From the NCBI GenBank assembly GCA_017506865.1, contig JAFCMP010000079.1, positions 496,001-560,000 of the forward strand: DNA of 64,000 nt, written 5' to 3'. Source of the DNA: Tribonema minus (lineage: Eukaryota; Sar; Xanthophyceae; Tribonematales; Tribonemataceae). Below are positions 14,991 to 62,427 of the stretch, piece by piece. The translations under genes and the position numbers were made by a program. The first letter of the stretch is position 1. Every line of letters starts with the position of its first letter. Under the pieces are notes generated by a model that worked only from the letters and a program-made list of their open reading frames with translations, made no database searches and was not told the origin of the DNA.

Positions 14991-16809
14991 GTCCACTGAC
15001 GGCGGCAGCGTCGACAGCGCCGCGGACTTTGCGGAGCTGCGGCGCATGCAGCGCGAGCTGGAGCGCGATCTGGACGCGTTTGCGCACGGCGGCGCCGCGT
15101 GGCCGGGTGAGATGAGATGCGCATTGCGCTGCGTACGTTCGTCGCGGGCGCTCGCAGCGCTCTGTGCGGTCGTGTGCTGCAGAGCGCTGCCACACGCGCA
15201 CGGCGGCCGCCGCTGCAGCTGTTGCGTGTCACGTCCGCTCTCTGCACGCCTTTCTGTGATCACTGGCGCGTGCGCTGACTGCGTGCGCAAATGGTCCTGA
15301 GCAGTATGATACAAGCCACAAGAAGTATGTATACCAGTACCAGAAGTTTTCCAAACACCCCCTTCCTGACAGAATTGGCATGGAATCGTTTGCATTCTGT
15401 TCCAAGTCGTGGACCGAAACCCCACTCTTAGCCCTAGTGTCTGGCGCCTTGCGCGGAGCTGATGCCCTCATCCCCCTCGTTGTGGAGCATCCCCACGGCC
15501 GGCTCGCACAGATTGCGTCAGATCCTGTACATTCTATGATAACGTGTTTCACCAACAAGCTGGACATTCCTGCTGTCCCGGTGCGTGCCAGCAGGCGCCC
15601 CCCCCCCGCAGCAGCACCGCCACCAGCGGCGCCACGACGCGCCAACGCACGCAGACGTGGCGGCAGACTTGGCCATGCGGCAGTGGCTCGCGCGCAGCGG
15701 CGGCGGCGGCGGTGGCAACGATGACGCAGCCTTCACGCGCGCGCTGGCGGCAGCGGCGCCGCCGCAGGCGTTCAGGGTGGCGGAGCGGCGGCAGGCGCTG
15801 GCGCACATCGCCGTGGCCTCGCACGTGGACTGGCTGCACGGGCTGCGGCAGGAGATGGAGGCGTACCGGTAAGTCACCTGCTGCCGGGAGGGGGTTGAAG
15901 CGGATATGGTGAATGTTAAAGTTGATGTGCAGATAGTATCGGTGAATCACCTGCCGGGAAGGGGAGTTGAAGAGGACATGGTGCATGGTGAAGTTGATGT
16001 TTGGATAGTATCGGTGAGTCACCTGCCGGGAAGGGAGTTGAAGTGGATGGTGGTGAAGGTTGAAGTTGCTGTACGGATGGCGTTTACGCGTGGGCGGGCG
16101 GGAATGGGTGGGCGACGCAAAGGGTTTTGAGTTGCGTGCCGTGGACTTCACCTCCATGCTGATGGTCCATGTGATTAAAGTTCAGGTAAGACATGGCCAT
16201 GCTGCGCCGAGGGGCCAGCAAACCTTTAAAATTAGATCAACCAATCCTTTCCAGGTCTGCATCTACGAAGCTCATGTTCGTGAACGCATGCGGGGGGATA
16301 GATACATTTAGCACCAAATGACACAACAGTGTCGTGTGTGCAGTACTGCCTCATCGTGCCTGTGCTACCATACGCCAAGCTAAGCTTGGCACTCAGGTCT
16401 TTGAACGCTGCTGCGCCGCGCTGCTGCGTGTGCTGTTGCAACTTGAACTTCGCAATCACCCTTGACGCCTCTTGCTACTCACAGATATACCAGCAGCAGC
16501 GCTCCACACTGTCCCCAGCGCTCACGAACCCCCAAGCTCCTCCACGCTTAGACGCAAGTATATCAATATAAGCAGCAGCAGCGGTCCTCACTGCCCTCAG
16601 CTCCTCCACTCTTAGACGCACTGACAGCACCGTGCCGCCGCCATTGCGTGTTGCCGTGTCTTCACAGATTTGGCTGTCACCCCGCAGGGGCTTCGCCGCC
16701 GAGACTGTACTACGACATGCACGACATTAGCGCCGCCGCGGACGCGCTGCTCTCGCCGCGCAGCACCAGACCGCGGCGCCCCTCGCGCAGGCACGCGCAG
16801 GAGGTCTAG
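8172..16809 (+). CDS. CEP164: CEP164-like transition-fibre (distal appendage) protein
   Basis: CEP164 sits on the distal appendages of basal bodies and is needed for docking and ciliogenesis. Eight exons (8172-9650, 9857-9970, 10398-10962, 11646-11887, 12199-13781, 14214-15106, 15592-15868, 16668-16809) join in phase to 1,764 residues (human 1,460). The N terminus matches CEP164 closely: ILEEEIDPNYVPTEEEV, then the WW domain (LPEHWKPC, EIYYFNF, STWDHPCDDYYRKLYEEE). A Ser/Ala/Gly-rich linker follows, then a coiled coil of several hundred residues that is extremely Ala-rich (repeats such as AAAEEA, LRAAAA, RDELRGERAAA). A C-terminal helical part includes DALQYWARKLDVERRVLAQAQ and ends LLSPRST..RHAQEV. 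Except for the WW region, the assignment rests on architecture. Exon 7 may start at 15592 or 15595. Splitting into two genes is possible but unnecessary, because every phase agrees. Confidence 0.85.
15868..16083 (+). repeat. Three tandem copies of the CEP164 intron 7 donor region
   Basis: Intron 7 begins with three consecutive copies of a 72 bp unit, starting near 15868, 15940 and 16012. Each starts with a donor-like CGGTRARTCACCTG and continues with GTTGAAG and GTTGATG or GTTGAAGTTG. The first is the donor implied by reading phase. A further imperfect duplication lies at about 16494-16625, containing CTCCTCCACGCTTAGACGCA and a close relative. Confidence 0.85.
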
Positions 16810-18823: not shown

Positions 18824-21800
18824 TCAGGAAAACTTGATCACGGCGCCGAGCGCTGTCCCCTGGCCCCACGCCGGATCCGTAACTGTCAGCTCGTCGCCGT
18901 CGGCGCAGAGCTCGCTGAGCGGCAGGTCCAGGTTGGGCTCGGTCTGCGCTCGCAGCGCCGGCGGCGCCTGGGCCGATAGCAAGGAAGGAACGCGGCGCGC
19001 GCGTGCGTCAGAGCGGTGAAGGGCATGCCGTATGCATGGTAGGCGGCGAGGGGAGGGGCAGCTCTGACGCAGTCTGCATCGCACTGCGATTGGTGACGTG
19101 CGCACATTCAAAGTTTGCTCCAAGAGGCGTGCGGCCGGCCGCACTCTACGCAGACTTCAACAAATTCCTCACAACACGCAGCCAGAGGGGGGGCAACGGC
19201 GCTGCAAACTTCAAGACAACACAAGCGTCGAGCGCTGCGGCAGCCCCCTCCTCCCCGGGACTCACCTGCATGAAGAGCACGCGCGAGGGGTGCGTCACCG
19301 ACGGCTTGCGGATCTTTAGCGCGGCGCCGCCGAGGTGGTCCGCGATGAACGCGCGCAGCGTCGTCGCGGCGGGGACGCGGAACGTGCGGCGCGGCGCCCC
19401 GCACACGACGCAGTCCGCGCGGCGCTCGAGCGCCATGGTGCTGCCGTACACGCCCGTGACGCCGTTGTACATGAGGTAGGTGTTGAGGACGTGGCCCGCG
19501 TAGGTGACGAGCTTGACGACCTCGAGCGCGCACGCGGCCGAGACGACGGCGTTCGTGCTCGCGACCGCGGGGATCACGTTCTGCGCGGCAGGGAGGGTTG
19601 GGGGGGGGGGGGGCGTTAGAGAGGGGAAGGCGGCGCTGGTGGCTGCAGGGCGGCACGCAGCGCTGCAGCGGCGCTCACGTCACCGCTGCCGTGTCCCAAG
19701 TCGTTCAGAATTCGTTCAGATTTTGCACCCCGCCTTCGGGCTCGATATCAGTGCTCTGCTGATTTTGTTAGAGCAGCAAGTTTGGGCATTTCATGAATGC
19801 AGTAACATGTGTTGCCAATGTACGCTGATACTGCTGATGTCTCGAAGCAAGCGTTTGATCTGCGGCGAGTAAGCCACGCGCGAGTGGCGGCGAAAAGGAG
19901 TCAGAGTTCACGAGTCTGAGGTCACGAGTCAGAGTTCAAGAGTCAAGGTTCAATTGTCTGACTTCACGAGTCGGCGACGCGCTGCACCTTGACCACGCCG
20001 ACAGTGAGCATGTGCGTGACGCCGGGTATCTGGTGCAGCTCCGCGCGCGAGTCGCGGCGAAAGGGAGTTAGAGTTCACAAGTCAGAGTTCACGAGTCTGA
20101 GTTAACGAGTCAGCGGCGCGCCGCACCTTGACCACGCCGACGGTGAGCATGTACGTGACGTCGGGTATCTGGTGCTGCTCCGCGCGCTCCTGCGCCCTCT
20201 CGTGGATCCACTTCATGTGCTCCGGGTCGTCCTTGTCCAGCTTCTTGTCGGGGAATGCCTGGCACGTTTGGGGGGGGGGGGGGAGGGGGGGCGGGGGGTC
20301 AGATGTGCCTGAAGTCGGAGGTTCACTTGGCGTGGAGGGGGGGGGGGGGAGGGGGGGGGGCAGATGTGTCTGAAGTCAGCGCGCAGATGCTCAGAAAACC
20401 ATCAGCGGAGCGGGTGTTGCTGATGAGGGTTGAACTGAGGTCTAGAACCTCAAGCAGAGATCAAAACACACAAGGATGAAGGAGCAGTAAGAGGGGGGCT
20501 GTCAAAGTCGCCCGCAACATCAACGTCAAAGCTCAGAAAACCATCAGCAGAGCAGGTGTTGCTAAGGAGGGTAAGATTTGAGGACAAGGACTCAAGCAGG
20601 ACATCAAAACACACAAATGTGAAGGAGCAGCAAGGGGGGGGGAGGGAGCTGTCAAAGTCGCCTGTAACATCAACTTCAAAGCTAAGGCAACCATCACCAG
20701 CGCAGGTGTTGCTAAGGGTGTTGGCGTTGAGGTCTAGCACCTTCAAGCGGGGGATCAAAGACACAAGGATGAAAGAGCAGGAAGGGGGAGGCATGCAGGC
20801 CATCAGGGCAGCGCACATTCGACAGTGAGAGCACAGCATCAATGTGGGGTCAGGTGCACCGCAAGGCCCTTGTCAACGCCGCACGCAACTTCAACTTCAA
20901 GCGGCAGGTACCTGCGGCCACTGCAGCAGGTGCGCTGTGGAGAGTTAAGGTTGGAAATGAAGTCTGCGACTCAGGCAGGAATTCAAAAGAGCAGCTGTCA
21001 GCGCCGCCCGCAACAGCAACTTCAAGCGGCGGGCACCTGCGGCCACTGCAGCAGGTGCGCGTAGCTGATGCAGTGCTCCGGCAGGCGCGGCGTGTCCGCG
21101 ATGGTGCACATGGGGAACACGCGCTGCGGCGGGAACAGGTCCAGGCTGCACTCGAAGCAGCTCGTGTGGCGCGGCAGGATGACGCGCGCGTGCCCCTTGA
21201 ACCCCTCCGTGCCGCCGTCGACAAAGGGTATGATGGTATCGGGGTCGATCACGTTGCCGTCGTCGTCGATTTCTGCGAGGCTGCGGCGCGCGCGCGCGCG
21301 CGCGGGAGCGAGCGAACGAGGAGCGCTGACACAGATGCGATGACTCGGATTAAGACTCAGAGTTGCGGTCGTCCAGCGTAGAGCAGTGCAGTACGCGGAG
21401 GTTTTGCTCACGTGTGGTGTAATGCGCTTGAAACGTCAGTGGCTTGGGTCCCTGAGCTGTTGTCAGAAGACTGATGTGGATCGGGATTTGCATGCGCGCT
21501 GGCAGCACGCTGTGCAGGGCATCATCGTGCCGAAATTGTCCATGTTAAATGCATATGGCACCATGGCACGAGGCAGGGTATGTTTGCAGATACGCAACTG
21601 CTTCTGAACCCTAACCCTAACCCTCATTCTGACCACAGCCCTACACCACCCTGGCTAGGTATGTATGTATAAATGCTGACGTACAGCACCTCGGCGCACA
21701 CAAACTGCACACACGTCAAGCACGCATCACAAATCTTAACACCTGACCCTTATCCTCGCCCCGCCCCAACCCTGGCCCTAAAACTCATCTAGCCCTCACA

Positions 21801-24479
21801 CTAACCCTACTCCAAACCCTAACTCTGGCGTCACCAGCGCTCAATGCGCACCTGCACAGCATGGAATTCATCCAGCGCCGCGCCTCCACATTGTCCAGCC
21901 CCGACACGACAACGCTGAACTGGCTGTAGAACTCGCCGTCAAAGTCCTGTATCTTGGCGTGGTGCGCCGCCACCTTGCAGCCGGGGACGCGCTTCTCAAT
22001 GAATTCCGCCGCCACCACTGCCTGGCACGCAGCGCGCAGGGGGGCGGAGGTGGGGGGGCGGGGCGGTGGGAGGGGGGGGTGTCAGCAAATTTTAGGAAAG
22101 GGGTGTGAGGCACGCAGCTCTCCCCCCCTGCACTTACTGTACTGCAAAGTGGTGATTGACAGTTGAACATTTGTGCTGAGGGGCCAGCACATACAGTCCT
22201 GGCGCTTGACATGCGGCCCGGAGTCGCCATGAGTTGCGCTGCTCAATGGTCCATACATCAGTACATGGCGCATTACGCTTAGGGTTTAGGGTTAGCTAAC
22301 CCTAACCCTAACCCTGAAACATTACGTATCATCACACCTCAAAGCGCTCATGATGGGCGGATTGACCACCACGCACAATGCAGCACACGACGAGATACCG
22401 AGAGCTACACGCTGTTTCAGCTCCAGCTCAAGTGCGGCTTCCACCACTTCTGGGTGGCCCCCGAACACACCGCGCCACACGCGCAGCACGCGCAGCCACT
22501 CAACTCACACCTTTAATAAATTATGACTAAATCTGACAATAATATCAAGAACTTAGTAAATCAACCTTATAAATATGGTTTTTCAACCTTGGGGCGCCCG
22601 ACGTCCTTCATGCGGAACAGGAACTGGCGGTTGAGGTTGGACAGGTCGATGGTGTCGACGTCGATGACGGTGATGTCGCGGCAGCCGCTCAGCGCCAGGT
22701 CCTTGAGCAGCTCGCAGCCGAGACCGCCCGCGCCAATCACCAGGATCTTGCAGTCCTCGCCCATCAGCGCGTCCTTCGTCTGCAGCGGCATGCGCGCGCG
22801 GGGCCAGCGCGGGGCCAGCAATGCTCAGGTTTAGGGTTTGAGGTTGTGCTGCGCACCTAGGGTTAGGGTTAGGGCGTGCTGCGCAGTACTTCCGATGACG
22901 AGAATTCTGCAGTCCTCGCCCATCAGCGCGTCCTTCGTCTGCAGCGGTGCGCGAGCGCGCAACGCTCAGGTTTAGCGTAAATACATACATACCGTTGCCA
23001 CCAAGTGTGTCGGGCTCAAACTGCGCCCACGGACCTCTGCACCGCACAACAACCCAGGGGCTTCGTACCCACAGTCTTGTGATGCCCAGACCTGCCACCG
23101 CTGCGGCGCAGGCGGCGCGCACCGGCGGCTGCGCGCCCATGCCTTCGCCGCGCTCACGCCGATGACCCCTCCCCCCCCCCCCCCCCCCCCCCCCAGCGGC
23201 TCGCATCGCTCAGCCACAAGCGCATACATGCTCATGCCTGTACCCAAATCCATATTCACACCCATACCACAAGAAAATAACACCATACCCAGACCCTCAT
23301 CCATACCCATTAGGTATACCCTACCCACGGGCACCTGTACGCATACCCTACCCACACGGGCACTCGCCTCTTCGCCTGGCTCGACCCGCAAATAGAACCA
23401 CATACTCAGACCACATCTATGCCCATACAGATGGGCATCTGTACGCATATCCTAGCCACGCACGCGCACTCGCCTCTTCGCCCGGCTCGAACTCCCCAAT
23501 GGGCAGCGCAACCGTTTCCGCGCCATACTTATACCCTACCCATACCCTACCCACGCACGCGCACTCGCCTCTTCGCCTGGCTCGAACTCCCCGATGGGCA
23601 GCGCGCCCGTCTCCGCGCCGAACGGCGACGAGCGCAGCAGCAGCCTGTCCATGTCCTCCCAGCGCTCGCCGCCACTGCCGCCGTCGCCGCCGTCGTCGCC
23701 GTCCGCAGGCGCGCCATTGTGCGCGCCGCCGATGTCGCCGTTGCCGCTGGCGGCGGCCTGCAAGGATGATGTGCGGTGCGTGACCATCACAACTGTAGGT
23801 GTGGGCTGTTGCCCGCAGCGCTCGGGAGTGCTACGGGCAGGGCACTTGATGGAGACAATGACCGCGGAGTTGCGCCGTGCGTGCTGGTGCCGTTGGGGCG
23901 TCGCAGCCTAACCCAAACTTTGATCTCAGGATGCAGCTCTCAAGGTGCCACCAATCACATTGCTGCCGCCGGCGTTAGCGCAGGTGCACGCGAACAGGTG
24001 CGACCCACGACGGCGGTCGACATTCGCTGTACGCTTCAGCAGCACGTGCCGAATTGCTTACCACTTTTGACGACACAGGTAACCGATACTGTACAGTTGC
24101 GGCAAATCACAAAGTTTCACGCATCGCTCCCGTGATGTACTGCTGCCGAACACGTACCCCGAGCGGCACTGCCCGCCGGCGACGCTCAGCACGCAGCGCT
24201 GTCACAGCGCTCAACACCAGGGCATCAGTGCTCACATGATGTGACAGCAACGCTCAGCATCAGGGCATCAGTGCTCAGCGCAGCGTCACAGCGCTCAGCA
24301 CCAGGGCAGCAGCGATCACCAACGGCATCAGCGATGCAGGCGGCGCTGACACGCACCTGCGCTGCTGCCGCCGCCTCTGCTGCCGCAGGCGCACTGGCCG
24401 CACAGTCTTTGGGCATCACCGCGGCGGCGGCGCAGGCGCCCTCGGGTGACAGCGGAACCTCATCCATTTTCCTCTTCAT
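18824..24479 (-). CDS. UBA3: NEDD8-activating enzyme E1 catalytic subunit UBA3
   Basis: UBA3 with APPBP1/NAE1 adenylates NEDD8 and passes it to UBC12, activating cullin-RING ligases. Eight minus-strand exons (24479-24357, 23757-23569, 22779-22588, 22021-21852, 21280-21037, 20258-20127, 19580-19266, 18967-18824) join in phase to 502 residues. Key features are all present: the nucleotide-binding loop [49 protein letters not shown], the catalytic cysteine in [16 protein letters not shown], zinc ligand pairs CFEC and [23 protein letters not shown], and a C-terminal ubiquitin-fold domain ending in GAVIKFS. The N terminus [14 protein letters not shown] is a poorly conserved, Ala-rich addition. Intron 2 uses a GC donor (GAG|gcgagt), which keeps phase. 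Introns carry several decayed copies of exon edges and telomere-like arrays. The gene spans 5.7 kb, mostly intron. Confidence 0.95.
19876..20130 (-). repeat. Duplicated donor end of UBA3 exon 6
   Basis: The last 60 or so bases of exon 6 with its donor (20127 and upward) recur at about 19984-20050, roughly 139 bp downstream in the direction of transcription. The neighbouring text, GCGCGAGTSGCGGCGAAA followed by GAGTTCACRAG units, is also repeated at 19876 and 20045. The copy keeps the donor-like AAG|gtgcag. Confidence 0.85.
20380..20936 (-). repeat. Tandem repeat array in UBA3 intron 5 including a copy of the exon 5 end
   Basis: Three units of about 145-150 bp start near 20388, 20532 and 20682, with shared blocks such as ACCATCASCRGAGCRGGTG and CAAAACACACAA. 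They continue into a copy of the exon 5 donor region at 20883-20936: RC of CTGCAGTGGCCGCAG followed by a gt. The true exon 5 end lies at 21037, 125 bp away. Unit edges carry CAACTTCAACTTCAA. Confidence 0.85.
21607..21832. repeat. CCCTAA array grading into degenerate telomere-like sequence
   Basis: Three perfect CCCTAA units (21607-21626) are followed, after a break, by degenerate text with ACCCT and CCCTAA words up to about 21832. It lies in UBA3 intron 4, next to exon 4. Confidence 0.7.
22278..22315. repeat. Head-to-head telomere-like palindrome in UBA3 intron 3
   Basis: TTAGGGTTTAGGGTTAG is followed directly by CTAACCCTAACCCTAACCCT, an inverted junction without spacer. Single-direction TTAGGG units also occur at about 22829-22876 in UBA3 intron 2. 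Confidence 0.85.
22893..22945 (-). repeat. Decayed copy of the UBA3 exon 3 acceptor and start
   Basis: On the minus strand the acceptor gctgcag followed by codons for [10 protein letters not shown](R)ILVIG is repeated 160 bp upstream of the real exon 3 (start 22779). The copy then runs into telomere-like sequence instead of the rest of the exon. Confidence 0.9.
23346..23640 (-). repeat. Three tandem copies of the UBA3 exon 2 donor end
   Basis: Copies of the exon 2 end (codons for FEPGEE followed by the GC donor gcgagt) occur near 23362 and 23468; the real one is at 23568. Spacing is about 95-106 bp. Copy two retains GEFEPG-like coding and also ALPIGEF; copy one is shorter. The GC donor word is kept in all three. 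Between copies the text is rich in CATACCC. Confidence 0.85.
24190..24315. repeat. Short CAGCGCTCA tandem repeats in UBA3 intron 1
   Basis: Units such as TCACAGCGCTCARCACCAGGGCA repeat about four times in UBA3 intron 1. The palindromic core CAGCGCTCA also appears between the telomere-like units of UBA1 intron 6. Confidence 0.7.
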
Positions 24480-24592
24480 GAAGTGAAGTTAGTGCGGCAG
24501 CGCGCCTCAACCAGGGTTCGTGTGCCACCCAGCGGAGGCACTCGAAACCCCAGCGGCAGCTGAGAGCACGACCTGGAGCGCAGAACTAGCGA

Positions 24593-24647
24593 GCAGCAGC
24601 AGCAGCAGCAGCAGCAGGAGCGGTGTGAGCAGCGGCGGCAGCGGCGG

Positions 24648-24678
<31 letters not shown>

Positions 24679-24681
24679 CGG
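24593..24681. repeat. AGC/AGCGGC trinucleotide repeat
   Basis: Interrupted runs of AGC and GGC triplets lie upstream of the UBA3 start codon on its minus-strand promoter side. The open frame across it encodes only low-complexity Ser. Confidence 0.85.
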
Positions 24682-25125
24682 CGTTGCGAAGACTGGCACC
24701 GGGCCATGAGGCGTGAGCAGTGTCCAAATGCCAACACTGGTGACGTGCTACAGTTGCACTTCAAAGGCATCTGTGGCGCGTCGCCAGGTCAAGATAATCA
24801 AGGGGAGGCGGGTGTGGCAGGGCCTGGGCACGGCTGCACCATGAGCGGAGCACCAGATGTAGCGACAGGGATAGGGTAGGTAGGTACCTACTCAGGCTGC
24901 AGCACGATCAGAAGATGCGGCGGAAGCAGAGGAGCACTGCGGCGGGCGTGTTGAAGAGCTCGGTCGGTGCTATACACCACAGCCAGAGATGGGCGCTGAG
25001 CAGTGACTCTTCAAAGGTGAAGTAGGCAGCGCATATATAGTCACGTTCAAGCTCCCAATGCTCGCGGGGGGACATGAACTCTACATGCCCTCAACATGCA
25101 GGTCGGATAGTGTGGCAATGTGTTT

Positions 25126-25413
25126 TCAGTGGGGGAAGTTCGTGCGCAGGGTTCTCGCTTTGTAAACCGCTTTCGCACGGAGCAAAAATATTGATGGGTC
25201 TTTTGCTGCCTTCTCGCTTCCCGTGGGGGCAGCATGGGAAAGGGGCAGCAGCGGCGGTTCCGGCACCCCAATCCGTGCCTGAATGCTGGTGGTGATTGTC
25301 AGTAGAGCACCATGATCATCCACATCGTCAGGTGTGACTGGTAGTAACCCCCTCCAATATTGAACAGACCATGCTAGGTTGTTGATTGACTCGAAAGCAG
25401 ACGCTGTGAGCAT
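25126..25413 (-). CDS. Hypothetical 95-residue open frame
   Basis: An ATG-initiated frame encodes residues with a balanced, protein-like composition (FESINNLAWSVQYWRGLLPV, TPDDVDDHGALLTITTSIQ) quite unlike the Arg/Ala shadows around it. I do not recognise the family. It has no signal peptide or clear membrane helix. It could be an exon of a longer gene, a decayed gene or chance. Confidence 0.2.
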   Translation of the reverse strand: MLTASAFESINNLAWSVQYWRGLLPVTPDDVDDHGALLTITTSIQARIGVPEPPLLPLSHAAPTGSEKAAKDPSIFLLRAKAVYKARTLRTNFPH

Positions 25414-41470: not shown

Positions 41471-41505
<35 letters not shown>

Positions 41506-51190: not shown

Positions 51191-51290
51191 TCCAAACACG
51201 GTACTCTGAACACACACACACGAAGGCAACAAACTTCAAGATAAAACTTCTTCACTTCTGATCAGATCATTCCCAATTACCCTCTTGCTG
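51191..51290. promoter_or_regulatory. Bidirectional promoter, YAE1 and UBA1
   Basis: The 100 bp between the divergent start codons hold a short CA repeat, an AACTTCAAGATAAAACTTC motif and a CCCAATTA word. The A/T content rises sharply against both exons. An acceptor-like tgttcag on the minus strand lies upstream of the YAE1 ATG. Confidence 0.5.
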
Positions 51291-54200
51291 ATGGCGTCCG
51301 CTGTTGCTATGGACAGCAGCGAGGATGGCAACGGCACCATGGAGGTGGACGAGTCCCTTTACTCGCGACAGGTATGTCCACAACTGACTGGATCCAGGAC
51401 GGAACAGCTCACACGACAACACACCGGAATGATCACCGCCTTTAACGCTGGTTGTGCTGTGCTGTCATCTTCTGTTTGCATCGCAGCTCTATGTTATGGG
51501 CAGGGAGGCTCAGCGCCGCATGGCCACCAGCGATGTGCTGATAGTTGGAGTCAATGGGCTCGGTGTGGAGGTCGCCAAGAACGTGATTTTGGCGGGAGTG
51601 AAGAGCGTGACGCTCTTGGACAGAACTCCTGCGAGCTGGTCGGACTTGGCTGCGCAGTTCTACCTCACAGAGGCGGATATTGGCAAGCCGCGTGCAGCTG
51701 CCTGCGTGAACAAGCTGGCTGAGCTGAACCGCTATGTCAAGGCAAGTGCGATGCGAAATGTGTTTCGTTCGTGGGCTGTACTCCTCATTGCAAGCCTTGA
51801 GGCCTGCATACGTGTGAAATGATTGCACTTGTGATGCAGTGAGCTTGACCATTTCATGCATGGCAGTAAGTAAATGCGCCAAAGCCATTTCTGTCGTGTT
51901 GGGTTTATCAGACGCATGCGCCAGGGACTTGGGCGCAGCAGCATATCACAGCACGCTGCGCAGTGCCCCACGGTGGCTGCCTCACTGTTGTGGGTTGCAC
52001 AAACGGCCTGCGGATTTGAGCTGCTGCCGTGTGCCGCTGTGCAGCAGCAGCAGCGCCGTGTCACCATGCGGCGCACACACTGCTACACACGAGGCACAGC
52101 CTCACGCTCGCCTCCTTGCTTTGATGCTTCTCTCAGGTGTGCCGCACACTCACATGCTGTGTGTTGTGACGCTTACTGTCCGCCTCGCACGTCCGCTCTC
52201 CACAGGTGTCGTGCGTAGAGGAGGACCTCACGACGACGCTCGTGAGCAGGTTCCAGGTCGTGGTGCTGATCGACGTGCCTCTGTCGGTACAGCTTGAGGT
52301 CGATGACTTCTGCCACTCCAAGGTGAGCCACCATACGCAATGCGAGCGTCACATATCGATTGATGCTATGTTCCTCTCTTTCACTTCAAGTCAGAAGTGC
52401 ACCTTCTGAAATGGCAACTTTACCTGGACGCGGTCTGCAGTTCTATTACGTTTTGCGTGTGTCGATTCTCTGCTGGGTCAGCATGTTCGCGCTGCTGATC
52501 GCATCGATACAGTCATGCACGCAGCCCGCGGCTTTGGGCCAGGCTTCAAGAGGAATTCAGTCAAGCCGGGCGTGCATGCCCTTGCCTTGCCGCGCGTGCT
52601 CGTCCAGCGTGCACACGCAGCACGGGCTGGCAACACTGTCACGTCAAGCGCGCGCTGTCACAATGAGCGCCAGCGGCGCTGCGCGCAGCCCTAAAGGAAT
52701 TCCTTGCCCACGCGACTGACGACGCGCACCGTCTCTGTGCACGCGCGGCCGTCGCCGCCAGGGGATCTGCTGCATCGCGGCGGACGTGAGGGGCGTGTTC
52801 GCGTCCGTGTTCTGCGACTTTGGGCCGGCGTTTGTCGTGTCGGACAAGAACGACACGCAGGTGAGTGCGCTCGAGACGTGTTCATTCCTGCGCCAGCACA
52901 GCACGCCAGTTGTCAGGAACCTGCGTCGCTGCTTTCACGCCAGCAGGTCACCTGCGCGGCAGTTGCGTCCGCCTCTGTTTTGGACACTTCGGCGCTTTCG
53001 CCAATTTTCTGCTTACGTGTAGAGCCGCTGTGGCGCAATCGTCTCCGCAACATTGCTGCCATTGGCCATGTCTGAGGGTTTACTACTGTTGAGCGCCTCT
53101 GTGTAGGCACGCACAGCAGTCATCAGCACGGCACGCACTCAGTTTTGGCATTGTAATTGCGGCGTGCCACATCATGTTTCAACTTCAACTTGTCAGCTGC
53201 GCGCCGATGCCACGCCGCGCTGCGCCAGCGCTTCCTCTCGTTGCCACCTGGGCACCTGCGCGCAGTCAATGAGCGCTTTTGCTCTCAACTTGACAGCAGT
53301 GCTCAGCGTTAGCAGTCGCCCATGTGACGCCGCGCTCTAACTTTGTCACGCTGCGATGTGCATATCCTGCAGGCGGTGTCGTGCCTCGTGAGCGGAGTCA
53401 CCAAGGACTCGCCGGCGCTGGTGACGGTCATGGACGATCAGCGCCACCAGCTCGAGACAGGCGACGTCGTGACGTTCGCATCGGTGGAGGTGAGTGGAGT
53501 CGACTCTTTGCAAGACTCAAGTCCTCGAGTCTGAGACCGAGGCTGACTGCCACGGCCAGTGCACCAATGTGGCCATTTCAGCAGGGGCAAAGGCGCATGC
53601 CCCGCCAGCATCCGATCACAGCCCTTGCCTGAGTCGCAGGCTGCGTTTCTGAGCAGGCTGCGCGACGACTCACGAGCGCTTGCGCCACACGCACATCCCA
53701 CATCACTACCTCAACCCAGTGACGTGCCGCTCGCGCCCGTGCGCAGGGCATGCCGGAGCTGGAGGGGCGCGAGTTTACCATCACGGAGCGCACGCTGCGC
53801 GTTGACTCACTAGCGCTTGCGCCACACGCGCGTCCCCTACTTCACTTCAACATGTGACGTGCCGCTCGCGCAGGGCATGCCGGAGCTGGAGGGGCGAGAG
53901 TTCACCATCACGGAGCGCGGCCCGTACGCGTTCGAGATCAACTGCGACACGACGGCCTTCGGCACGTTCGTCTCAGGCTACGTCAACCAGGTCAAGCAGC
54001 CCGTCACGGTCGCGTTCAAGCCGCTGCGCGCGGCGCTGGACCAGCCGGAGCCGTTCATGGAGACGGACTTTGCAAAGTTCGGGCGGCCCGGCGTGCTGCA
54101 CCAGGTGCGCTGCGCGCCTGGCAAGCTCATGTGCCACATTATTTCAAAGTTGGCGTGATGAAGTAGAAGCAGACATGCATGCACTGGCAGAGTTTTGCGG

Positions 54201-57200
54201 CGCTCCTGCTTCGTGAGTGCCTGCAGCGCATGCCTCTCGGATGCCGTCAGAATTCACAGACGTGCACATAGGTGCGGTGCGCTGGCTCATGCGGCGCCGT
54301 GGCCCTCATGGTCAAGCCAGGGCTGGGGCTAAGGGCAGGGTTAGGGTTAGGGTTAGGTTACACCCGCGTGCCTCAGCGCTCAACGCATGAATTAGGGTTA
54401 GGGTCAGGGTCATCACGCCCGCGCTCATCAGCGCTCAATGCACGTGGGGTTTGGGTTAGGGTAACGCCCGCTCCTCAGCGCTCAACACCCACATGCCAAT
54501 CCCGTCGACCCATGCCCCCCTCCGCCCCCTTATCCCCCCTACCCCCCACCGCAGGGCTTCCGCGCGCTGCACCGGTACCGCGCGGAGCACGGCGGCGCGC
54601 TGCCAGCGCCCGGCAACAGCGCTCAGGCGGACGCGCTGCTTGCGCTGGCGCGCGAGCTCAATAGCGGCAGCAGCGACGGCTACAAGGCGGATGGGCTGGA
54701 CGGCGCGGAGGCGGCGCGCGTGCTGCGCGCGCTCGCGAGCACGTCGCGCGGCGTAGTGAGCCCCGTGTGCGCGGCGGTGGGCGGCGTCGTGGGGCAGGAG
54801 GTGCTCAAGGCGGCCTCTGGGAAGTTCATGCCGATACGCCAGTGGCTGTACTGGGACGCGGAGGAGGCGCTGCCGGCGGCGGCGGAGGGCGGCGTGCTCG
54901 CGGTGGAGGAGGTGCAGCCGCAGGTGCGTGCGTGTGCGGCGCGTCACTTCAAGTTGAAGTTTGTGCACATCTGTGTGTGTGTGTGTGTGCGTGTGTGTTG
55001 TGTGTGTTTGCGTGTTGTGGCGAGGACTCGTCCGCGCGAAACCCACTCTCGTAGCTGGAAGTGGGAGTGGCATTGCGCACAGGGGTTGCAGTTAGGTTAC
55101 ATGGCACTGGAATGCTTCGCGGCGGAGCAGACACGTTTGCAGGTGCGCTGCCACGGTTCCTGAGCAGCGTTATCAAAGCAGGTTGTTGACGCGCTCTGTT
55201 GACCACAGTACATAGTGGAGCACTTTCGTAGCGAATGGTGCTGAAGTAGAGAAGAGTAGAGCGGGAGCACGTTGCTGAGCATCACCACGTCTCTTCAAAT
55301 ACAACGCTCACTATATGGATCTTGAGCGTGTCAGAGAAGCTCTGCCAGGAGAGGTGGTGCACGGGGCAGTGTTCACATTACTACAGTTGAAGTCGTTTAC
55401 ATTACTGTAGTTGAGTCGCAGGGCGTACCTTGGGTACTGACGCTAACATGACTACAGCTGAAGTCATGTTGCTGATTGCATAGATAGTGTATGTTGACTA
55501 TCGCGCATTATGCTGATACAACGCCAGTAGGCTCTGGCAGGGTCAGTTGAGGCGGTCACTGCTCATACTCACTACTACAACAACGCAATAGGTCAACGAG
55601 ATTGACAAGCAAAAACACAATCAACCAAGCTCTAATGGAAGGCCAGCTTTAACCTGTCACACAACTTTTGGCAAGTCCTGACTGCCTTAGAAATCTCCAC
55701 AAAAAAAGTAATGAAGTAATGCGCTCAAGGGAACCACGCCTTTCATGGTGTGTTATCACAGCGGTCGTGACCGATGAGTGCAGTAGACTCGGGCCAGCGG
55801 CACGGCACCGGTGTAGACACTTGCTCATGTGGCAACTTTGTCTCAACCTGCAAGTGGTGTTCATTCTGGCCATAGTTGTGCTGCATCACGAAACGCACAA
55901 CTTCAAGGGTAAAGTAACTGTGCCTTGCAACATATCATGACGTATGACTTAAAGCTTGCAACGTACTGTGATGTATGACCGTGAGGGTAGCATGGCTGCT
56001 GACCAGTTGCTCGCTACATGACAACTCTGAAGCGCGCAGCCATGTATGTGGCTCCACGTGTTGAAGTTTGTAGAGTCTGCAACAATGCAGCACACTGCAC
56101 ATGGCGTGGCACGTCACCTCTACCACCCTACGTGCAGACTTCAATGATTCTTTTGCTGTTCACTGGTATCCTGCCATCGTGTGCTGCCGCTACGCGGTCC
56201 GCGGCACACTACTTGGTCGGCGCATGCGTCAACATGCATGATTTCGAGTATATGCTATGCTTCAACTGTTTTCGTGCGCCACTCATGCGATTTAGCCCCC
56301 TGAAGATTTGACTGCCGCCGCAAATCGAGTGCAGTCGTATACGCTCACCCTAAGCCTAGCTACGTACGCCGTCTCTCCACATCAGTGCCAGCGTGTGCCC
56401 CCTCACCCCCTGCCCCCCCCCTCCTTCCCCTCACCAGAACTTCAACTCCTTGTGCGTTCTGACCCCCCCCCCCCCCTCCCCCCTCGCCAGAACTGCCGCT
56501 ACGACGGCCAGATCATGGTCTTTGGCAAGGTTTTGTGCCCTCTGACCCCCCCTCACCCCCTGCCCCCCACCCCACCCCCCCCACCCCCCCCCCTTCCTGC
56601 CCCACCAGAACTGCCGCTACGATGGCCAGATCATGGTGTTCGGCAAGACGCTGCAGGCGGCGCTCGGCGCGCAGAACCTCTTCCTGGTCGGCGCCGGCGC
56701 GATCGGCTGCGAGATGCTCAAGAACTGGGCCATGATGGGCGTGGGCTGCGGCCCGGGGGGCGCGATTCACGTAACTGACATGGACCACATCGAGCGCTCC
56801 AACCTCAGCCGCCAGTTCCTGTTCCGCGAGGAGCACATAGGGAAGCCCAAGAGCGCGACGGCGGCGGCGGCGGCGCGCGCCATGAACGGGGACATGAAGC
56901 TGAGCGCGCACGAGTTGAAGTGCGCGCCCGACACGGAGGGCGTCTTCAACGACGACTTCTACGCGCACCTCACGGGCGTGTGCACCGCGCTCGACAACGT
57001 GGAGGCGCGCCTGTACATGGACCAGGTGAGAGGGGGCTGCACGGGCACTTGAAGTTGAAGTACACTTGAAGTTGGAGTTATGTGCACTTGAAGTTGAAGT
57101 GCGCACGGAGGGCGTCTTCAACGACGACTTCTTCGCGCGCCTCACGGGCGTGTGCACAGCGCTCAACACCGTGGAGGCGCGCCTGTACATGGACCAGGTG

Positions 57201-60200
57201 AGCGCGGGTTGCGCAGTTGAAGTTGAAGTGCGTATTTGAAGTGTATAATGGAGGGGGCTTGCTGCTGCGCACTCAAAGTCGAAGTGCGTACGCGGTGGCG
57301 CACGGCTGGGAGCTACTGTCGTGCACGTGTGCGCTCTGTGGCTGCAGTGCGCGCCGCAGCGGCCATGGCGTTTAGGTGTGCTGCTGGTGACGGCCACCTC
57401 CTGTACAGCACGCGTACGGTATATCACTGGCTGCTTGCTTGCTTGCGGGCAGTGGTCTGAGGCCACTTGGACCCCTTGTGGGCAGTGCGCGGAATCCTCT
57501 TTGCGATGCCACCATACATTTGAAGTCACAGTTCAAGTACAAGTGCACTGGCCGCGTCACGTGCGCGTGCTTGCCGACATAAAAGTTACGCAGCAGGTGG
57601 TCATTGGGCAGTGTCTCGTGCTGCGTGAAGCACACACACCGGGTTGCAAATGCATTCGGCACGTGGCCATGACCGCCAGCGACTGCTAAGGGTTAGGGTT
57701 ACGATTAGGGTTGCGGTTAACCCTCACCCTAAGCCGCCAGCGCTGTCCTCCGCGACCTGAAATATCACATGTATCTATGCACAAGGCACCCATGACGTAC
57801 GGGGGCACGCCGGCGCCGAAGTCAATGCTGCTGAGCGTGCCACCATATTCTTCAACTCCCTTCTCACCTCTGCTGCCGCCGCCGCGTCCGTGTCACGCGT
57901 GCGCACCCGCAGAAATGCCTCTTCTACAAGAAGCCCATGTTCGAGTCGGGCACGCTCGGCACCAAGGGCAACACGCAGGTCGTGGTGCCGTACCTGACGG
58001 AGAACTACGGCGCGAGCCGCGACCCGCCCGAGAAGAGCATCCCCGTGTGCACGCTCAAGAACTTCCCCAACCAGATCGAGCACACGCTGCAGGTGCGCGC
58101 GCGGCTCATGCCCGGTACTTCAACTTGAACTGCAACTCGAGCGCACGCCGGTATTGGGTGTGTATGTGTGTGTGGGGGGGGGGGGGGATCACTTTTGACT
58201 CTAACTTGAAGTGAAACTTCAACTGATGTATGGCATCCCCGTGTGCACGCTCAAGAACTTCCCCAACCAGATCGAGCATACGCTGCAGGTGCGCGGTCCG
58301 TGTGGGTATTTCAAACGTAAACTGAAACTCAAGGGCACGCTGCTACCGGTGCAGAGGGGGGGGGGGGGGGCACTTCCATTTCTGACTTCGACTGAAACTT
58401 GAACTGACTTGCGGCCGTGCGCGTACGCTCGTGCGCGTGCATGCAAGCGCGTGTGGGACCACGTGCATGATTGTTGCGTCCGCCGCATGACTGCCAACTC
58501 TCGTGTTCAGTCTGAAGCTTTGCCTCCTGCCGTTTGCATCTGAGCATGCGCTTCGGCGCACTGCCGCTGGCCCTATGGAGGCAGTGGCCGCCGCGTGCCG
58601 CTCAGCGCTGCCACATTTGCCATGCGGTTCGCGGCATTGCCTTCCGCATGCACGCACAACCGCCACCAGCAGCGCCACAGGAAGGCTTCGGCCGCAGCTG
58701 CTGCCGCCGCACTCGTCACTGCGCGGGCATGTTGTCTCGTCACGCATCAGGCCGGCCTCCGCGCACCCGCGCTGCCAAAGCCTCGGTGCCTGCGTGCGCG
58801 CTCCGTGCTACCCGTTCATTTGCCCGCTTGCGTCAGTCGGCACCTGTGCAGGGCAGGGGGGACGGGAGCGCTTGCCTGCTCCTTCGTGTTCTGCACCGCT
58901 CATCTGTGCCTGACCCTGGCCCTGAATTTGACTCTACTTGCGACTCGTCTAGGAGTGTGCGCGGGACTGGTTAGGCGACGCCGGCGCGTAGCGCGACATG
59001 CTCGACTACCTCGCGCACAGCTCACCTGATGCGAACCTGGACCATGACTCTGACTTTGACTCATTTTTGCAGTGGGCATGCGACTGATGCAAGGTCGCCG
59101 CCTCGCAGAGTGTGCGCGACGCCAACGCAGTGTATCTGACCCTGACTCTGACCCTGACTCGCCGCCGCAGTGGGCGCGCGTCTGATTCGAGGGCGCCTTC
59201 TCGCAGAGCGCGGGCGACGCCAACGCAGCATATCTGACCCTGACTCTGACCCTGACCCCTCACCGCAGTGGGCGCGCGACTGGTTCGAGGGCGCCTTCTC
59301 GCAGAGCGCTGGCGACGCCAACGCGTACCTGGAGATGCCGGACTTCCTGGCGCAGCTCGCGGCGCAGCCCAACGCGCGCCTCGAGACGCTGCGGCGCGTG
59401 GAGGAGGCGCTCGTGAGCGGGCGGCCGGAGCGCTACGCGCAGTGCGTGCAGTGGGCGCGCCTGCGCTTCGAGGACCTCTTCCACAACACGGTCGCGCAGC
59501 TGCTGCACAACTTCCCCGCCGACAGGTGCGTCACATGCGCTTCGTCGTAACGCTCAGCGGCGGTGCCCGTCGTGCAACGGCCAGGCATCGCAAGCTTCTT
59601 CTCTGTTGCGGCAGGCGGCGCGCCGTCGCAGCGCTCAGGGGCGGTGCCCATCGCGTATCATGCAGCGGGCAGGTATCGCAAGCGTTTTTCCTCATGTGGC
59701 AGGCGGCGCGCTGTCGCAGCAGCGTACAGCAGCGGGTTCCCATCGCGCATCATGCAACAGCGAGGTATATCAAGCCTCTTCTCGCTTTGATGGCGAGCGG
59801 CGTGAGCGGCAATTTGCGACATGAAGCATCACCGGCAGCACAGCTTCCCCGCCAGCACACGAGCGCAGGCAGCGTCGCCAACTGCTGGCAGGCGCGACAG
59901 CATTCGTGACTGGCTGGCTGGCCCGCCGTGCATTTTGGCATTGAGCTCAGACGTTCTCCGGTGCTGCCGTCCACACCGCATAGCCTCTGCCCACTTCTGG
60001 GCCAACGGAGTGCGCGTGCGCATTGTGGTACGGGCTGCATCATTGAAACTGCTGCCTTGCACGCCCTCATGCATCCTGTTCTAGTCTTCTGTAGTTTTTG
60101 GCGTAGGGACGCGCTGGGGTCTGGCTTTGCCAAGCAACAGCGGCAGGCACGGCACCCGCCTCTGGGGCAGTAGCACACCGCCTGTCAAAGCTGCGCCGCT

Positions 60201-60354
60201 GACTGGTGGTGCAAGTCTTGCTTGGGCTGTCGTTGCCAACCGCCAACCCCCCCTCCCATGCGTGCGCAGTGTGACGAGCTGCAGCACCCATCTTCTAGAG
60301 CGGCGGCACGTCACCCGTCAACTGCGCCTTACCGTTGAAGTTTCATCATGTCCG

Positions 60355-60387
<33 letters not shown>

Positions 60388-62427
60388 CGCGCGCAGCATG
60401 ACGAGCTCCGGCACCCCCTGCTAGCGCAGTGACACTTCACTTATTAGCTGCGCCTGCGCGCCGGAGCCTGGCCCTCTCGAAGTTCCATCGTTTTCAAACC
60501 ACTTCCCCCCCCCCCCCCCCCCCTGCAGCATGACGAGCTCCGGCACCCCCTTCTGGAGCGGCGCCAAGCGCCCCCCCACGCCCGTCGCCTTCGACGCGGA
60601 CGACCCGCTGCACGTGGCCTTCGTGCGCGCCGCGGCGGACCTGCGCGCGGCCAACTACGGCATCGCCGCCGCGGCCGACGACGCCGCCGTGCTCGCCGCG
60701 CTCAGCAGCGTGATCGTCCCCGACTTCACGCCAGCGGAGGGCGTCAAGATCGCCGTGACGGAGGCTGAGGCGAAGGAGGAGGGGGCAGGGGGGGGCGCGG
60801 GCGGGGGAGGGGGAGGGGGAGGGGGTTTCATGATGGACACGGACGCGCAGTGCGCGGCGCTGGTGGACGCGCTGCCGGAGCCGGCGTCGCTGGGCGCGTT
60901 CCGGCTCGCGGCGGTGGAGTTCGACAAGGATGTCGATGCGCACATGGTGCTGGTGACGGCGGCGAGCAACCTGCGCGCGCGCTGCTATAAGATCCCGGAG
61001 GCGGACATGCACCGCTCGCGGCTCATCGCTGGCAAGGCAAGTCGCAGTCGCCGGCTCTGAGTCACTGCTGAGTCTCGATCGCAGAGTCCGAGTAGCTAGT
61101 AGCTGGCGGTGCAGGCAGCGCTGGCACGTTGGCAGCGATGTGCGCGTGGCACTGCTTGCCACAGCGATCGACCCACGTGCACGCTGATGCTGCCAAGCCT
61201 AGAGGGGGGCGTGCGTTGCACGCAGCTGGTGGCGCCGCAGCGAGTCATCCTGAGTTATCGCGCACAGGAGTTCTTTGAAGCCCACACGGGCGCCCTCACC
61301 TGCATGTGTAGGCAAGGCATAGGCATGCACATATGACGCCGGTGATGGTAATGGCGGCGGTCTTGCGGCGCAAGGGCTGTCACAGGGTAGTGTAGGCCGC
61401 CTCGCACCAATTTCGGCTTAAACACGACCCTCAGAGCTCATCCGGCAAAGCATTATTTGTCCTGGGTGGCAGATTTCGCTACTTTGGAACTGTACCTGTA
61501 GTTCAAAGTATGCACTGCTTGTTCATGCATTGTTCACAAGTTCTTGGGATTGGTGCTGAGGTGAAGGTCGGTCTTCTAGTGAGCCCTCAGGCAGAGCACT
61601 CCTGCGCCCAGGTCAACATGTCATGCCCCCTGGCAAGGGGATTCATTCGCGTTCCTGCTGAAAGGTGCCGATGACGCGGCGACTTAGGGTTAGGGTTAGG
61701 ATGCCCTGCCGCCACTGAAGTCCGCCGACGTGTCACAGTGAGTACTACAGCAGCCCCCGCATACATACATGCATCCTGCATCCCGTATACCCATACCCTC
61801 TTTCCGTACAGGGCGCCACTCAGCCTTTGCTCATGCGCGCCACGTGACCCCCTCCCATTTCCCCTCTAACCCCCCAAACACCCCCCGCCCCCCACACACC
61901 CCCTCGCGCAGATCATCCCCGCCATCGCCACCACGACGGCGCTCGTGACGGGCCTCGTGTGCCTTGAGCTCATCAAGGTCGCGCAGGAGAAGCCCCTCGA
62001 GGCGTACAAGAACTGGTTCCTCAACCTGGCGCTGCCGCAGTTCGCGTGCAGCGAGCCGATACCGCCCGCGACGACGGCCGTCAAGCTGAAGGGGCGCGAG
62101 TGGCGCTGGTCCGCGTGGGACTGCATCGACGTCGACCGTGGCGACATCACGCTCGCCGCGCTGTTCGCGCTACTGCGCGACGAGTACGGCCTCGAGGTGA
62201 CCATGCTCTCGCATGGCGTGTCGATCCTCTTCTCGTTCTTTGCGAGCAAGAAGAAGGCCGCGGAGCGCCTGCCGATGCGCATGACGCAGGTCGTCGCCGC
62301 CGTCACCAAGCGCGAGGTCGCGCCCACGCAGCGCTACCTCATCTTCGAGGTATGCGCGTCGGACGTCAAGACCAGCGAGGACGTGGAGATACCGTACCTG
62401 CGCTTCAAGCTGCCGCCGGCGCCGTGA
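51291..62427 (+). CDS. UBA1: Ubiquitin-activating enzyme E1 (UBA1)
   Basis: UBA1 adenylates ubiquitin, forms a thioester on its cysteine and loads E2 enzymes. Twelve exons (51291-51371, 51487-51741, 52206-52322, 52762-52860, 53373-53489, 53874-54104, 54555-54923, 56609-57025, 57913-58092, 59269-59525, 60529-61036, 61912-62427) join in phase to 1,048 residues (human 1,058). Landmarks: [15 protein letters not shown] at the N terminus, the inactive adenylation repeat ([15 protein letters not shown]), first catalytic half-domain ([10 protein letters not shown]), active adenylation site [17 protein letters not shown] with [35 protein letters not shown], the catalytic Cys in [49 protein letters not shown] and the ubiquitin-fold tail ([16 protein letters not shown]) ending LRFKLPPAP. 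Introns 2 and 11 have GC donors (AAG|gcaagt). At least six introns contain decayed copies of exon ends. A Gly-rich insert (GGGAGGGGGG) lies in the second catalytic half-domain. Confidence 0.97.
53667..53918 (+). repeat. Duplicated acceptor and start of UBA1 exon 6
   Basis: A copy of the acceptor region and codons [15 protein letters not shown] lies at about 53720-53792, 128 bp upstream of the real exon start (53874). The preceding text (GCGCTTGCGCCACACGC) is duplicated too. The copy then diverges. Confidence 0.92.
54325..54480. repeat. Telomere-like units in UBA1 intron 6
   Basis: Three blocks of TTAGGG-type units (about 54330-54360, 54392-54412, 54448-54466) alternate with a CTCAGCGCTCAA-containing spacer, giving a roughly 60-70 bp tandem period. 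Confidence 0.8.
56430..56650 (+). repeat. Duplicated acceptor and start of UBA1 exon 8
   Basis: The poly-C tract, acceptor ccag and codons [13 protein letters not shown] occur at 56491-56529 and again at the real exon start 56609, 118 bp apart. An older remnant (CTCACCAGAACTTCAACTCC) lies near 56430. After the first copy the text reverts to intron. Confidence 0.92.
57047..57232 (+). repeat. Duplicated donor end of UBA1 exon 8 flanked by GAAGTTGAAGT motifs
   Basis: The end of exon 8 (codons EGVFNDDF to RLYMDQ, then gtgag) ending at 57025 is repeated at about 57105-57198 with Y to F, H to R and D to N changes. The copy begins exactly at ACTTGAAGTTGAAGTGCGC, and ACTTGAAGTTGAAGT, ACTTGAAGTTGGAGT and AGTTGAAGTTGAAGTGCG flank it. 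Confidence 0.92.
57685..57737. repeat. Head-to-head telomere-like array in UBA1 intron 8
   Basis: AGGGTTAGGGTTACGATTAGGG is followed by GGTTAACCCTCACCCTAAG, an inverted order. It is the third such junction in the window. Confidence 0.75.
58037..58290 (+). repeat. Duplicated donor end of UBA1 exon 9 (catalytic Cys segment)
   Basis: Codons for [18 protein letters not shown] with the donor gtgcgcg end the real exon at 58092 and recur at about 58233-58288, 196 bp on. The copy is preceded by ACTTGAAGTGAAACTTCAACT. A G-run follows each copy (58165-58177 and 58356-58369). Confidence 0.92.
59067..59300 (+). repeat. Decayed tandem copies of the UBA1 exon 10 acceptor and start
   Basis: Copies begin at 59073 and 59171, and the real exon at 59269, a 98 bp period. 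Each is preceded by TGACYCTGACTCTGAC-type text and an acceptor (tttttgcag, gccgccgcag, caccgcag), and reads TGGGCRYGCG..TG. Copies one and two carry stop codons soon after the start. A more decayed relative lies near 58953. Confidence 0.92.
59526..59785 (+). repeat. Tandem repeat at the start of UBA1 intron 10
   Basis: Three units of about 85 bp share CAGCGGCGGTGCCCRTCG, CARGYATCGCAAGC and GGCAGGCGGCGCGC. They start shortly after the exon 10 donor at 59526. Confidence 0.8.
60266..60560 (+). repeat. Copies of the UBA1 exon 11 acceptor, with long poly-C tracts
   Basis: The acceptor and codons MTSSGTP recur at about 60270 and 60397 before the real exon at 60529 (period about 130 bp). Poly-C tracts of 29 (60357-60385) and 17 or more (60505-60523) precede the last two. 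The copies diverge after about ten codons and include TAG stops. Confidence 0.9.
61685..61701. repeat. Short TTAGGG array in UBA1 intron 11
   Basis: About two and a half TTAGGG units in plus orientation lie within UBA1 intron 11, between exons 11 and 12. Confidence 0.7.

What the first reader, a model, noticed from the sequence alone, without database searches (positions are those of the whole stretch)
15868..60560. Introns carry tandem copies of exon edges with their splice sites, in many introns of several genes
In CEP164 (intron 7), PP2C (introns 2 and 6), UBA3 (exon ends 2, 3, 5, 6) and UBA1 (exons 6, 8 start, 8 end, 9, 10, 11) the segment crossing a splice site is repeated two to four times in tandem, with periods of about 70-200 bp. 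Both donor-side and acceptor-side copies occur. Copies retain the GT or AG, but most have lost their frame or carry stops. Older copies are more decayed. About a dozen independent cases in 64 kb cannot be chance. I infer an ongoing process that duplicates DNA at exon-intron borders, moving splice sites and lengthening introns. Tandem duplication of AGGT-containing segments has been proposed as a source of new introns; this locus may show it in action.
Basis: partly seen in the sequence, partly recalled or inferred. Interest (0 to 1): 0.88.

Follow-up and report, generated by a model that had tools for sequence, protein, structure and literature searches.

The report
Duplicated splice-site edges inside introns
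In a yellow-green alga, short stretches of DNA spanning the border between coding and non-coding parts of genes are often duplicated next door; splicing appears to remove the extra copy, so the protein stays the same while the intron gets longer.

Summary
The genome is Tribonema minus. It is not peculiar to this window: in 24 other 10-kb stretches, 37 of 174 predicted splice sites (19/84 donors, 18/90 acceptors) are crossed by a copy. Local duplicate pairs are direct (180 against 4 inverted), and all 37 nearest copies lie on the intron side, so the outermost site can still be used and the protein kept. Inner copies look like neutral debris: GT/AG is kept no better than neighbouring bases and distances ignore the frame. 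No intron shows birth by AGGT duplication (0 of 71). Best reading: genome-wide local tandem duplication, in which splice-site-crossing events survive because splicing removes them. Much of the clustering at splice sites is visibility (one copy sits in a conserved exon): the excess is about 7-fold unmasked and 2.2-3.3-fold with exons masked (13 observed, 4.0-5.9 expected). That residual preference is the interesting, unexplained part. Limits: sample gene models are my predictions; no RNA-seq, second strain, or control eukaryote.

The parts
15863..16078 (+). donor-edge array, exon ending 15868 (CEP164-like gene), 3 copies, period 73
   Evidence: 79-81% identity, about 6 bp exonic
19874..20187 (-). 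UBA3 exon 6 donor-edge copies (site 20127), distance 139
   Evidence: 86%, about 61 bp exonic
20871..21060 (-). UBA3 exon 5 donor-edge copy (site 21037), distance 125, spaced
   Evidence: 91%, 24 bp exonic
22733..22957 (-). UBA3 exon 3 acceptor-edge copy (site 22779), distance 159, spaced; telomere-like repeat between copies
   Evidence: 87%, 47 bp exonic
23315..23619 (-). UBA3 exon 2 donor-edge array (site 23569), distances about 103 and 199
   Evidence: 76-92%
39637..39959 (+). donor-edge array, predicted exon ending 39643 (upstream of the PP2C exons), distances 102 and 221
   Evidence: 75-83%
42182..42495 (+). PP2C donor-edge array (site 42239), distances 128 and 255
   Evidence: 85-92%; does not appear (complexity filter)
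53653..53918 (+). UBA1 exon 6 acceptor-edge copy (site 53874), distance 137
   Evidence: 82%, 45 bp exonic
56463..56647 (+). UBA1 exon 8 acceptor-edge copy (site 56609), distance 118, C-rich spacer
   Evidence: 87%; does not appear (complexity filter)
56913..57242 (+). UBA1 exon 8 donor-edge copy (site 57025), distance 179
   Evidence: 85%, 113 bp exonic; TTGAAGTGCGC-like sequence at both ends of the unit, by eye
58037..58407 (+). UBA1 exon 9 donor-edge copy (site 58092), distance 196
   Evidence: 76%; does not appear
59040..59324 (+). UBA1 exon 10 acceptor-edge array (site 59269), 3 copies, period 98
   Evidence: 84% and 76%
60247..60566 (+). UBA1 exon 11 acceptor-edge array (site 60529), distances 127 and 259
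   Evidence: 68% and 81%; 68% (distance 127)
20389..20792 (-). intron-only array in UBA3 intron 5 (comparison case)
59537..59775 (+). intron-only array in UBA1 intron 10 (comparison case)
51309..62427 (+). UBA1 gene, 12 exons
18824..24479 (-). UBA3 gene, 8 exons

Best explanation
Tribonema minus undergoes frequent short local tandem duplications (nearest-copy distances mostly about 70-200 bp). An event inside an exon normally breaks the protein and is lost (inferred). An event that crosses a splice site survives if the duplicated unit carries a working splice site: the outermost copy, next to the intact exon, is still used and everything inward is spliced out. The protein is unchanged and the intron grows by one unit from its edge. 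The extra copy then decays freely. Shown here: direct orientation, intron-side polarity, decay without regard to frame or splice signal, occurrence beyond the window, UBA1 and UBA3 proteins free of copy sequence, more splice-site contacts than the intron background predicts even with exons masked. Inferred: that the lesion is a staggered break or paired nicks filled in and rejoined by end joining, and that breaks start more often in or beside exons than inside introns.
For: 37 of 174 sites carry a crossing copy and 37 of 37 nearest copies lie on the intron side (a copy in the other flanking intron would have been accepted). 180 direct against 4 inverted pairs. In 27 of 37 pairs the intronic remainder of the unit aligns better than other pairs' introns (z>=3), as tandem duplication predicts; 8 lie at z 2-3 and 2 below 2. 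For the 27: 43/584 mismatches (7.4%) at codon positions 1+2, where mostly the copy changes, and 36/290 (12.4%) at position 3, where both can; the ratio of about 1.7 is what a freely decaying copy beside a conserved exon should give. Distances mod 3 are 11/15/11 and GT/AG is not specially kept. UBA1 and UBA3 proteins contain no copy sequence. Excess at splice sites: 13 observed against 4.0-5.9 expected with exons masked, p 3e-4 to 8e-3; unmasked 37 against 5.3-5.5, locus bootstrap 7.1-fold, 95% 4.2-11.9.
Against: The end-joining step is not shown: ancestral unduplicated sequences are unknown, and no second allele of the UBA1 or UBA3 region was found. Intronic divergence is poorly resolved: about 20% in the 27 pairs, but unrelated introns reach about 26% under the same gap-permissive alignment, so the expected two-fold relation is not well tested. 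Several pairs combine exonic identity above 90% with weak intronic homology (L007 1943, z 0.1; a 98% copy at L022 6832-6883), so some cases may need conversion or partial copying. Of the 13 abutting arrays in the masked test, 3 are not linked to an exon-edge copy and 1.4 are expected by chance. TRF on the same loci gives 10 border arrays (at least one at a gene end) against 16 intron arrays; I fitted no matched expectation to these. Stop-codon edges show 1 of 17, too few to compare. Loci differ more than chance (p=0.003): 0 of 15 sites in L012 and in L025, 5 of 8 in L009; cause unknown.
Confidence: 0.7

Rival explanations
1. Uniform neutral tandem duplication with no preference for splice sites. 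Border copies are merely easier to see, because one copy sits in a conserved exon, and persist longer because that copy cannot be lost.
For: Masking exons cuts the excess from about 7-fold to 2.2-3.3-fold; an extra two-fold persistence factor cuts the unmasked excess to 3.4-3.5; intron-only and intergenic arrays do exist (20 and 18).
Against: The simulated detection advantage is only 1.12-1.29; the exon-masked excess keeps p between 3e-4 and 8e-3.
Confidence: 0.22
2. A splicing- or transcription-coupled process (R-loop, RNA-templated repair, spliceosome-bound RNA) copies exon edges specifically.
For: Excess at splice sites; heterogeneity among loci; short intronic reach of local alignments at donors (13 of 18 at most 24 bp against 32% simulated, first filter).
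Against: The short reach was largely a local-alignment effect: 27 of 37 pairs keep intronic homology. The 37 nearest copies never lie in the other flanking intron, which RNA-templated pasting would allow.
Confidence: 0.07
3. Intron birth by tandem duplication of AGGT-containing exon segments.
For: Copies carry both exon and splice site; such births are documented elsewhere (PMC3443670 passages; PMC4974935).
Against: 0 of 71 introns have donor edge and acceptor edge alike beyond the null 99% point (11 of 82 introns were too short to test); copies sit inside existing introns.
Confidence: 0.03
4. The copies are functional (alternative exon ends, decoy or backup splice sites) and kept by selection.
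For: 27 of 37 nearest copies keep both GT/AG bases.
Against: Splice dinucleotides are kept no better than neighbouring exon bases (63/74 against 390/425); the spread of mismatches over codon positions (36/31/64, first filter) fits silent change in the exon plus frame-free change in the copy; distances ignore frame.
Confidence: 0.04
5. Assembly artefact.
For: Repetitive GC-rich genome; no raw reads here.
Against: The 37 nearest copies are 68-95% identical, too diverged for mis-assembly; found in 13 of 22 loci that have tested sites.
Confidence: 0.01

Closest known systems
[quoted passage not shown] abstract and results section read)
   Same: Direct tandem duplication across a splice site, with both copies kept and diverged.
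   Different: There a new intron and new exon segment arose; here existing introns get longer, at 37 of 174 sampled splice sites.
Tandem genomic duplication model of intron gain with AGGT (review PMC3443670, passages read)
   Same: Same kind of mutation; splicing hides the duplicate.
   Different: The model needs the duplicated exon segment to supply both ends of a new intron; 0 of 71 introns show it.
Novel Drosophila intron positions from sliding or tandem duplication (PMC2891723, abstract and outline seen)
   Same: Tandem duplication near splice sites changes intron anatomy.
   Different: There novel positions; here no change of position was seen in the UBA1 and UBA3 cases checked.
Direct repeats near splice sites (PMC11782384, abstract and outline seen)
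   Same: Direct repeats at or near exon-intron borders, attributed there to insertion and break repair.
   Different: Those repeats are 4-30 bp and compared between the two borders of an intron; these are distances of about 70-200 bp at one border.
Short tandem duplications from adjacent single-strand breaks or patch repair in plants (Schiml 2016; Vaughn and Bennetzen 2014; seen only as reference-list entries in PMC7368036 and PMC8316200)
   Same: Direct local duplications are the expected product (recalled).
   Different: I recall no preference for splice sites there; those papers were not read.

Membership tests
Tandem duplication crossing an exon-intron boundary | direct repeat whose unit spans the splice site | tested here: met
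   37 of 174 sampled sites; 13 of 56 in the window
Tandem duplication crossing an exon-intron boundary | homology continues through the intronic part of the unit | tested here: met
   27 of 37 pairs z>=3, 8 at 2-3, 2 below 2
Tandem duplication crossing an exon-intron boundary | copies real in reads, polymorphic or dated by relatives | not testable with these tools
   no reads, strains or relatives held; no second allele found for two regions
Intron gain by AGGT tandem duplication | donor edge and acceptor edge of the same intron are homologous | tested here: not met
   0 of 71 introns above null 99%
Intron gain by AGGT tandem duplication | intron absent at that position in relatives | not testable with these tools
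   no related eukaryote genome held
Introners | inserted sequence recurs in introns of unrelated genes | tested here: not met
   0 of 30 spacers between copies match another locus at E<=1e-4 with low-complexity masking (first filter; only the sampled 240 kb and the window searched)
End-joining tandem duplication (staggered break, paired nicks) | direct orientation, short unit, little or no junction homology | tested here: inconclusive
   orientation and size fit; in five contiguous pairs picked by eye aligned length minus distance is 0-7 bp, none of them at a splice site, so not a systematic test
Functional alternative exons | frame or splice signals preserved in copies | tested here: not met

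The most novel reading that the evidence does not exclude
T. minus has a duplication process whose lesions start preferentially at exons or exon edges (perhaps coupled to transcription or splicing), several times above the intron background. Its introns therefore grow to a large part from their ends by splice-site-bearing units - a genome-wide mode of intron lengthening that I have not found described.
Probability: 0.35. Interest if true: 0.75.

Novelty: new variant of a known kind. Interest (0 to 1): 0.52.

Why it matters
How introns lengthen is usually told through transposons (general knowledge). Here 37 of 174 splice sites in a sample of the genome carry the visible trace of a small duplication that splicing seems to have made harmless, with younger and older examples side by side. 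That gives a graded series for measuring rate, size, decay and tolerance of such events, and a testable question: why are splice sites hit more than intron interiors? It also warns gene finders, since inner copies look like exon ends (my own predictor called some as exons).

Tried and rejected
1. An 'edge-only' class (homology stopping 5-24 bp past the donor) looked like copying of exon edges with filler. It was largely an artefact: local alignment stopped early and my first complexity filter dropped multi-copy arrays. The fixed filter and anchored alignment show intronic homology in 27 of 37 pairs. The donor/acceptor contrast of intronic reach (13/18 against 3/17) rests on the old extents and is not used as evidence.

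2. Filler made of telomere repeats: 5 sites in 11.1 kb of spacers (0.45 per kb) against 0.129 per kb elsewhere, with the old filter and few sites; not used.

3. First self-training of the gene finder drifted to tiny exons and was replaced. Locus L023 was all N and was dropped.

4. An earlier expectation (10.9-fold at detection factor 1, 8.6 at 1.27) used a shorter unit length; replaced.

5. High GC as cause: intron-only arrays have GC 0.504, below non-coding 0.547; border arrays 0.577, exons 0.706.

6. A second allele in the assembly: none for the UBA1 and UBA3 regions tried. The T. minus genome paper (DOI recalled) and Gao and Lynch 2009 are not held.

Full report
WHERE. The window is G000:C79:496001-560000, from a 158 Mb genome in 554 contigs. 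The UBA1 protein I read from it matches the Tribonema minus E1 enzyme (100% identity over 99%; contig length 1,396,252 in both). T. minus is a yellow-green alga (Xanthophyceae; recalled). The next named hits are Chrysoparadoxa and two brown algae.

THE OBSERVATION. I built models of UBA1 (12 exons) and UBA3 (8 exons). For PP2C I used five exons read from the sequence (Pfam PP2C, 150 bits) plus one predicted upstream exon. With a complexity filter 10 of 56 curated sites pass; the three others were seen unfiltered, giving 13 of 56. Donor copies lie downstream of the donor and acceptor copies upstream of the acceptor.

THE SAMPLE. To test whether this is general I took 25 stretches of 10 kb, one from each of contigs C1-C25, at random starts between 20 and 500 kb. 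One was all N and was dropped. I wrote a small gene finder trained on UBA1 and UBA3 and retrained on confident exons. Sites were kept if the exon scored at least 8, was at least 45 bp long, the splice signal scored at least 2 and the edge was internal: 84 donors and 90 acceptors.

BEYOND THE WINDOW. 19 of 84 donors and 18 of 90 acceptors are crossed by a local direct copy whose partner lies in non-coding DNA within 1.5 kb. Of the local duplicate pairs, 180 are direct and 4 inverted; 128 of the 180 lie within 300 bp. All 37 nearest copies lie on the intron side. One Markov shuffle per locus gave 0 arrays against 74 (first filter). 13 of the 22 loci with sites have at least one such copy. Loci differ more than chance allows (p=0.003).

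NATURE OF THE COPIES. Anchored alignment shows that the intronic remainder of the unit is also duplicated in 27 of 37 pairs (z>=3), doubtful in 8 and not detectable in 2. In the 27, divergence is 43/584 (7.4%) at codon positions 1+2 and 36/290 (12.4%) at position 3, close to what a freely changing copy beside an exon that changes only at silent sites should give. The intronic figure, about 20%, is poorly resolved, because unrelated introns give about 26% under the same alignment. Splice dinucleotides in copies are not preferentially kept (63/74 bases against 390/425 neighbouring exon bases, two-sided p=0.08), and distances fall 11/15/11 modulo 3. The inner copies therefore behave as neutral debris of tandem duplication, not as exons or decoys.

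DO THEY CLUSTER AT SPLICE SITES? Arrays split into 45 border (any edge of a confident exon), 20 intron-only, 18 intergenic and 6 exonic. Taking the intron-only rate and a simulated detection advantage of 1.12-1.17, 5.3-5.5 of 174 sites should be crossed; 37 are. Bootstrapping loci gives 7.1-fold (4.2-11.9). The fairest test removes the advantage of the conserved exon: with exons masked, 13 intronic arrays end within 8 bp of a splice site against 4.0-5.9 expected, 2.2-3.3-fold (p 3e-4 to 8e-3). Of the 13, 10 are linked to an exon-edge copy; about 1.4 would end that close by chance. TRF found 10 border, 16 intron, 8 intergenic and 4 exonic tandem arrays; its border class includes gene ends and I fitted no matched expectation. 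So a preference remains, of about two- to three-fold where the test is fair.

WHAT IT IS NOT. No sign of intron birth: donor and acceptor edges of one intron are alike beyond the null 99% point in 0 of 71 introns (11 of 82 too short to test). Not an introner-like element: 0 of 30 spacers recur in other sampled loci (first filter). Not a switch to an inner splice site in UBA1 or UBA3: the proteins and public models stay in the outermost copies. The public UBA3 model differs by 18 and 6 nt at the exon 2/exon 3 junction, where it seems to avoid a GC donor.

MECHANISM. Best reading: frequent short tandem duplications, probably from repair of staggered breaks. Those inside exons are purged (inferred), those in introns are neutral, and those across a splice site are neutral when the unit carries a working site, because splicing removes the surplus. 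Orientation, polarity, decay and unit size fit. The repair step is inferred. The residual preference for splice sites suggests that breaks start in or near exons more than in intron interiors; alternatives are residual bias or a transcription- or splicing-linked process. Introns with an edge copy are longer (1078 against 676 bp, 25 and 65 introns, p=0.018), as expected if they grow this way, though long introns also offer more room.

LITERATURE. Single cases of tandem duplication across a splice site are known (PMC4974935, abstract and results section read; PMC2891723, abstract and outline). The AGGT model is reviewed in PMC3443670 (passages read). Short direct repeats at intron borders were surveyed in PMC11782384 (abstract and outline). 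I found no genome-wide account of introns lengthening by border duplications, nor any for Tribonema, in the listings of searches (open-access library only; listed papers other than those named, and passages of PMC7368036 and PMC8316200, were not opened).

LIMITS. Predicted gene models in the sample, no RNA; 240 kb of 158 Mb, from the first 500 kb of 24 contigs; no relative, strain or control eukaryote; several thresholds chosen by me; expectations assume uniform rates and independence.

Noticed in passing
whole genome; in the window near 18000, 21610, 22296, 22860, 43591, 54337, 57690, 61685: Telomere-like (TTAGGG)n runs are scattered through introns and intergenic DNA: 5238 + 6236 overlapping matches of (TTAGGG)3 in the genome, 0 for the reversed control; contig C2 begins with the same repeat. 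31 sites of two or more units in 240 kb of the sample. May be scars of break repair.
   Followed up: partly
non-coding DNA of the sampled loci: A near-palindromic motif (ACTTGAAGT / AACTTCAACTT) is common in introns: 0.62 per kb outside duplicated stretches, 2.07 per kb in spacers between copies (first filter).
   Followed up: partly
51741, 61036, 23569 and predicted donors: GC-AG introns look frequent: C at +2 in about 18% of the donors in my trained model, 3 of 18 in my UBA1 and UBA3 models. Public models avoid two of these three and lose or gain residues there.
   Followed up: partly
G000:C125:80546-81799: A second E1-like gene, 68-76% identical to parts of UBA1 exons 8 and 9.
   Followed up: no
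L018 2867-3050: A 92-bp contiguous tandem duplication at 99% identity crossing the stop codon of a predicted gene: same neutral logic at a gene end, apparently very recent.
   Followed up: partly
L012, L025 against L007, L009, L027: Loci differ strongly: 0 of 15 sites duplicated in L012 and in L025, but 4 of 7, 5 of 8 and 6 of 13 in the others.
   Followed up: no
4363-4992 and 46517-47812: SBDS gene (+) and a protein with RelA_SpoT and HD_4 domains (-).
   Followed up: no
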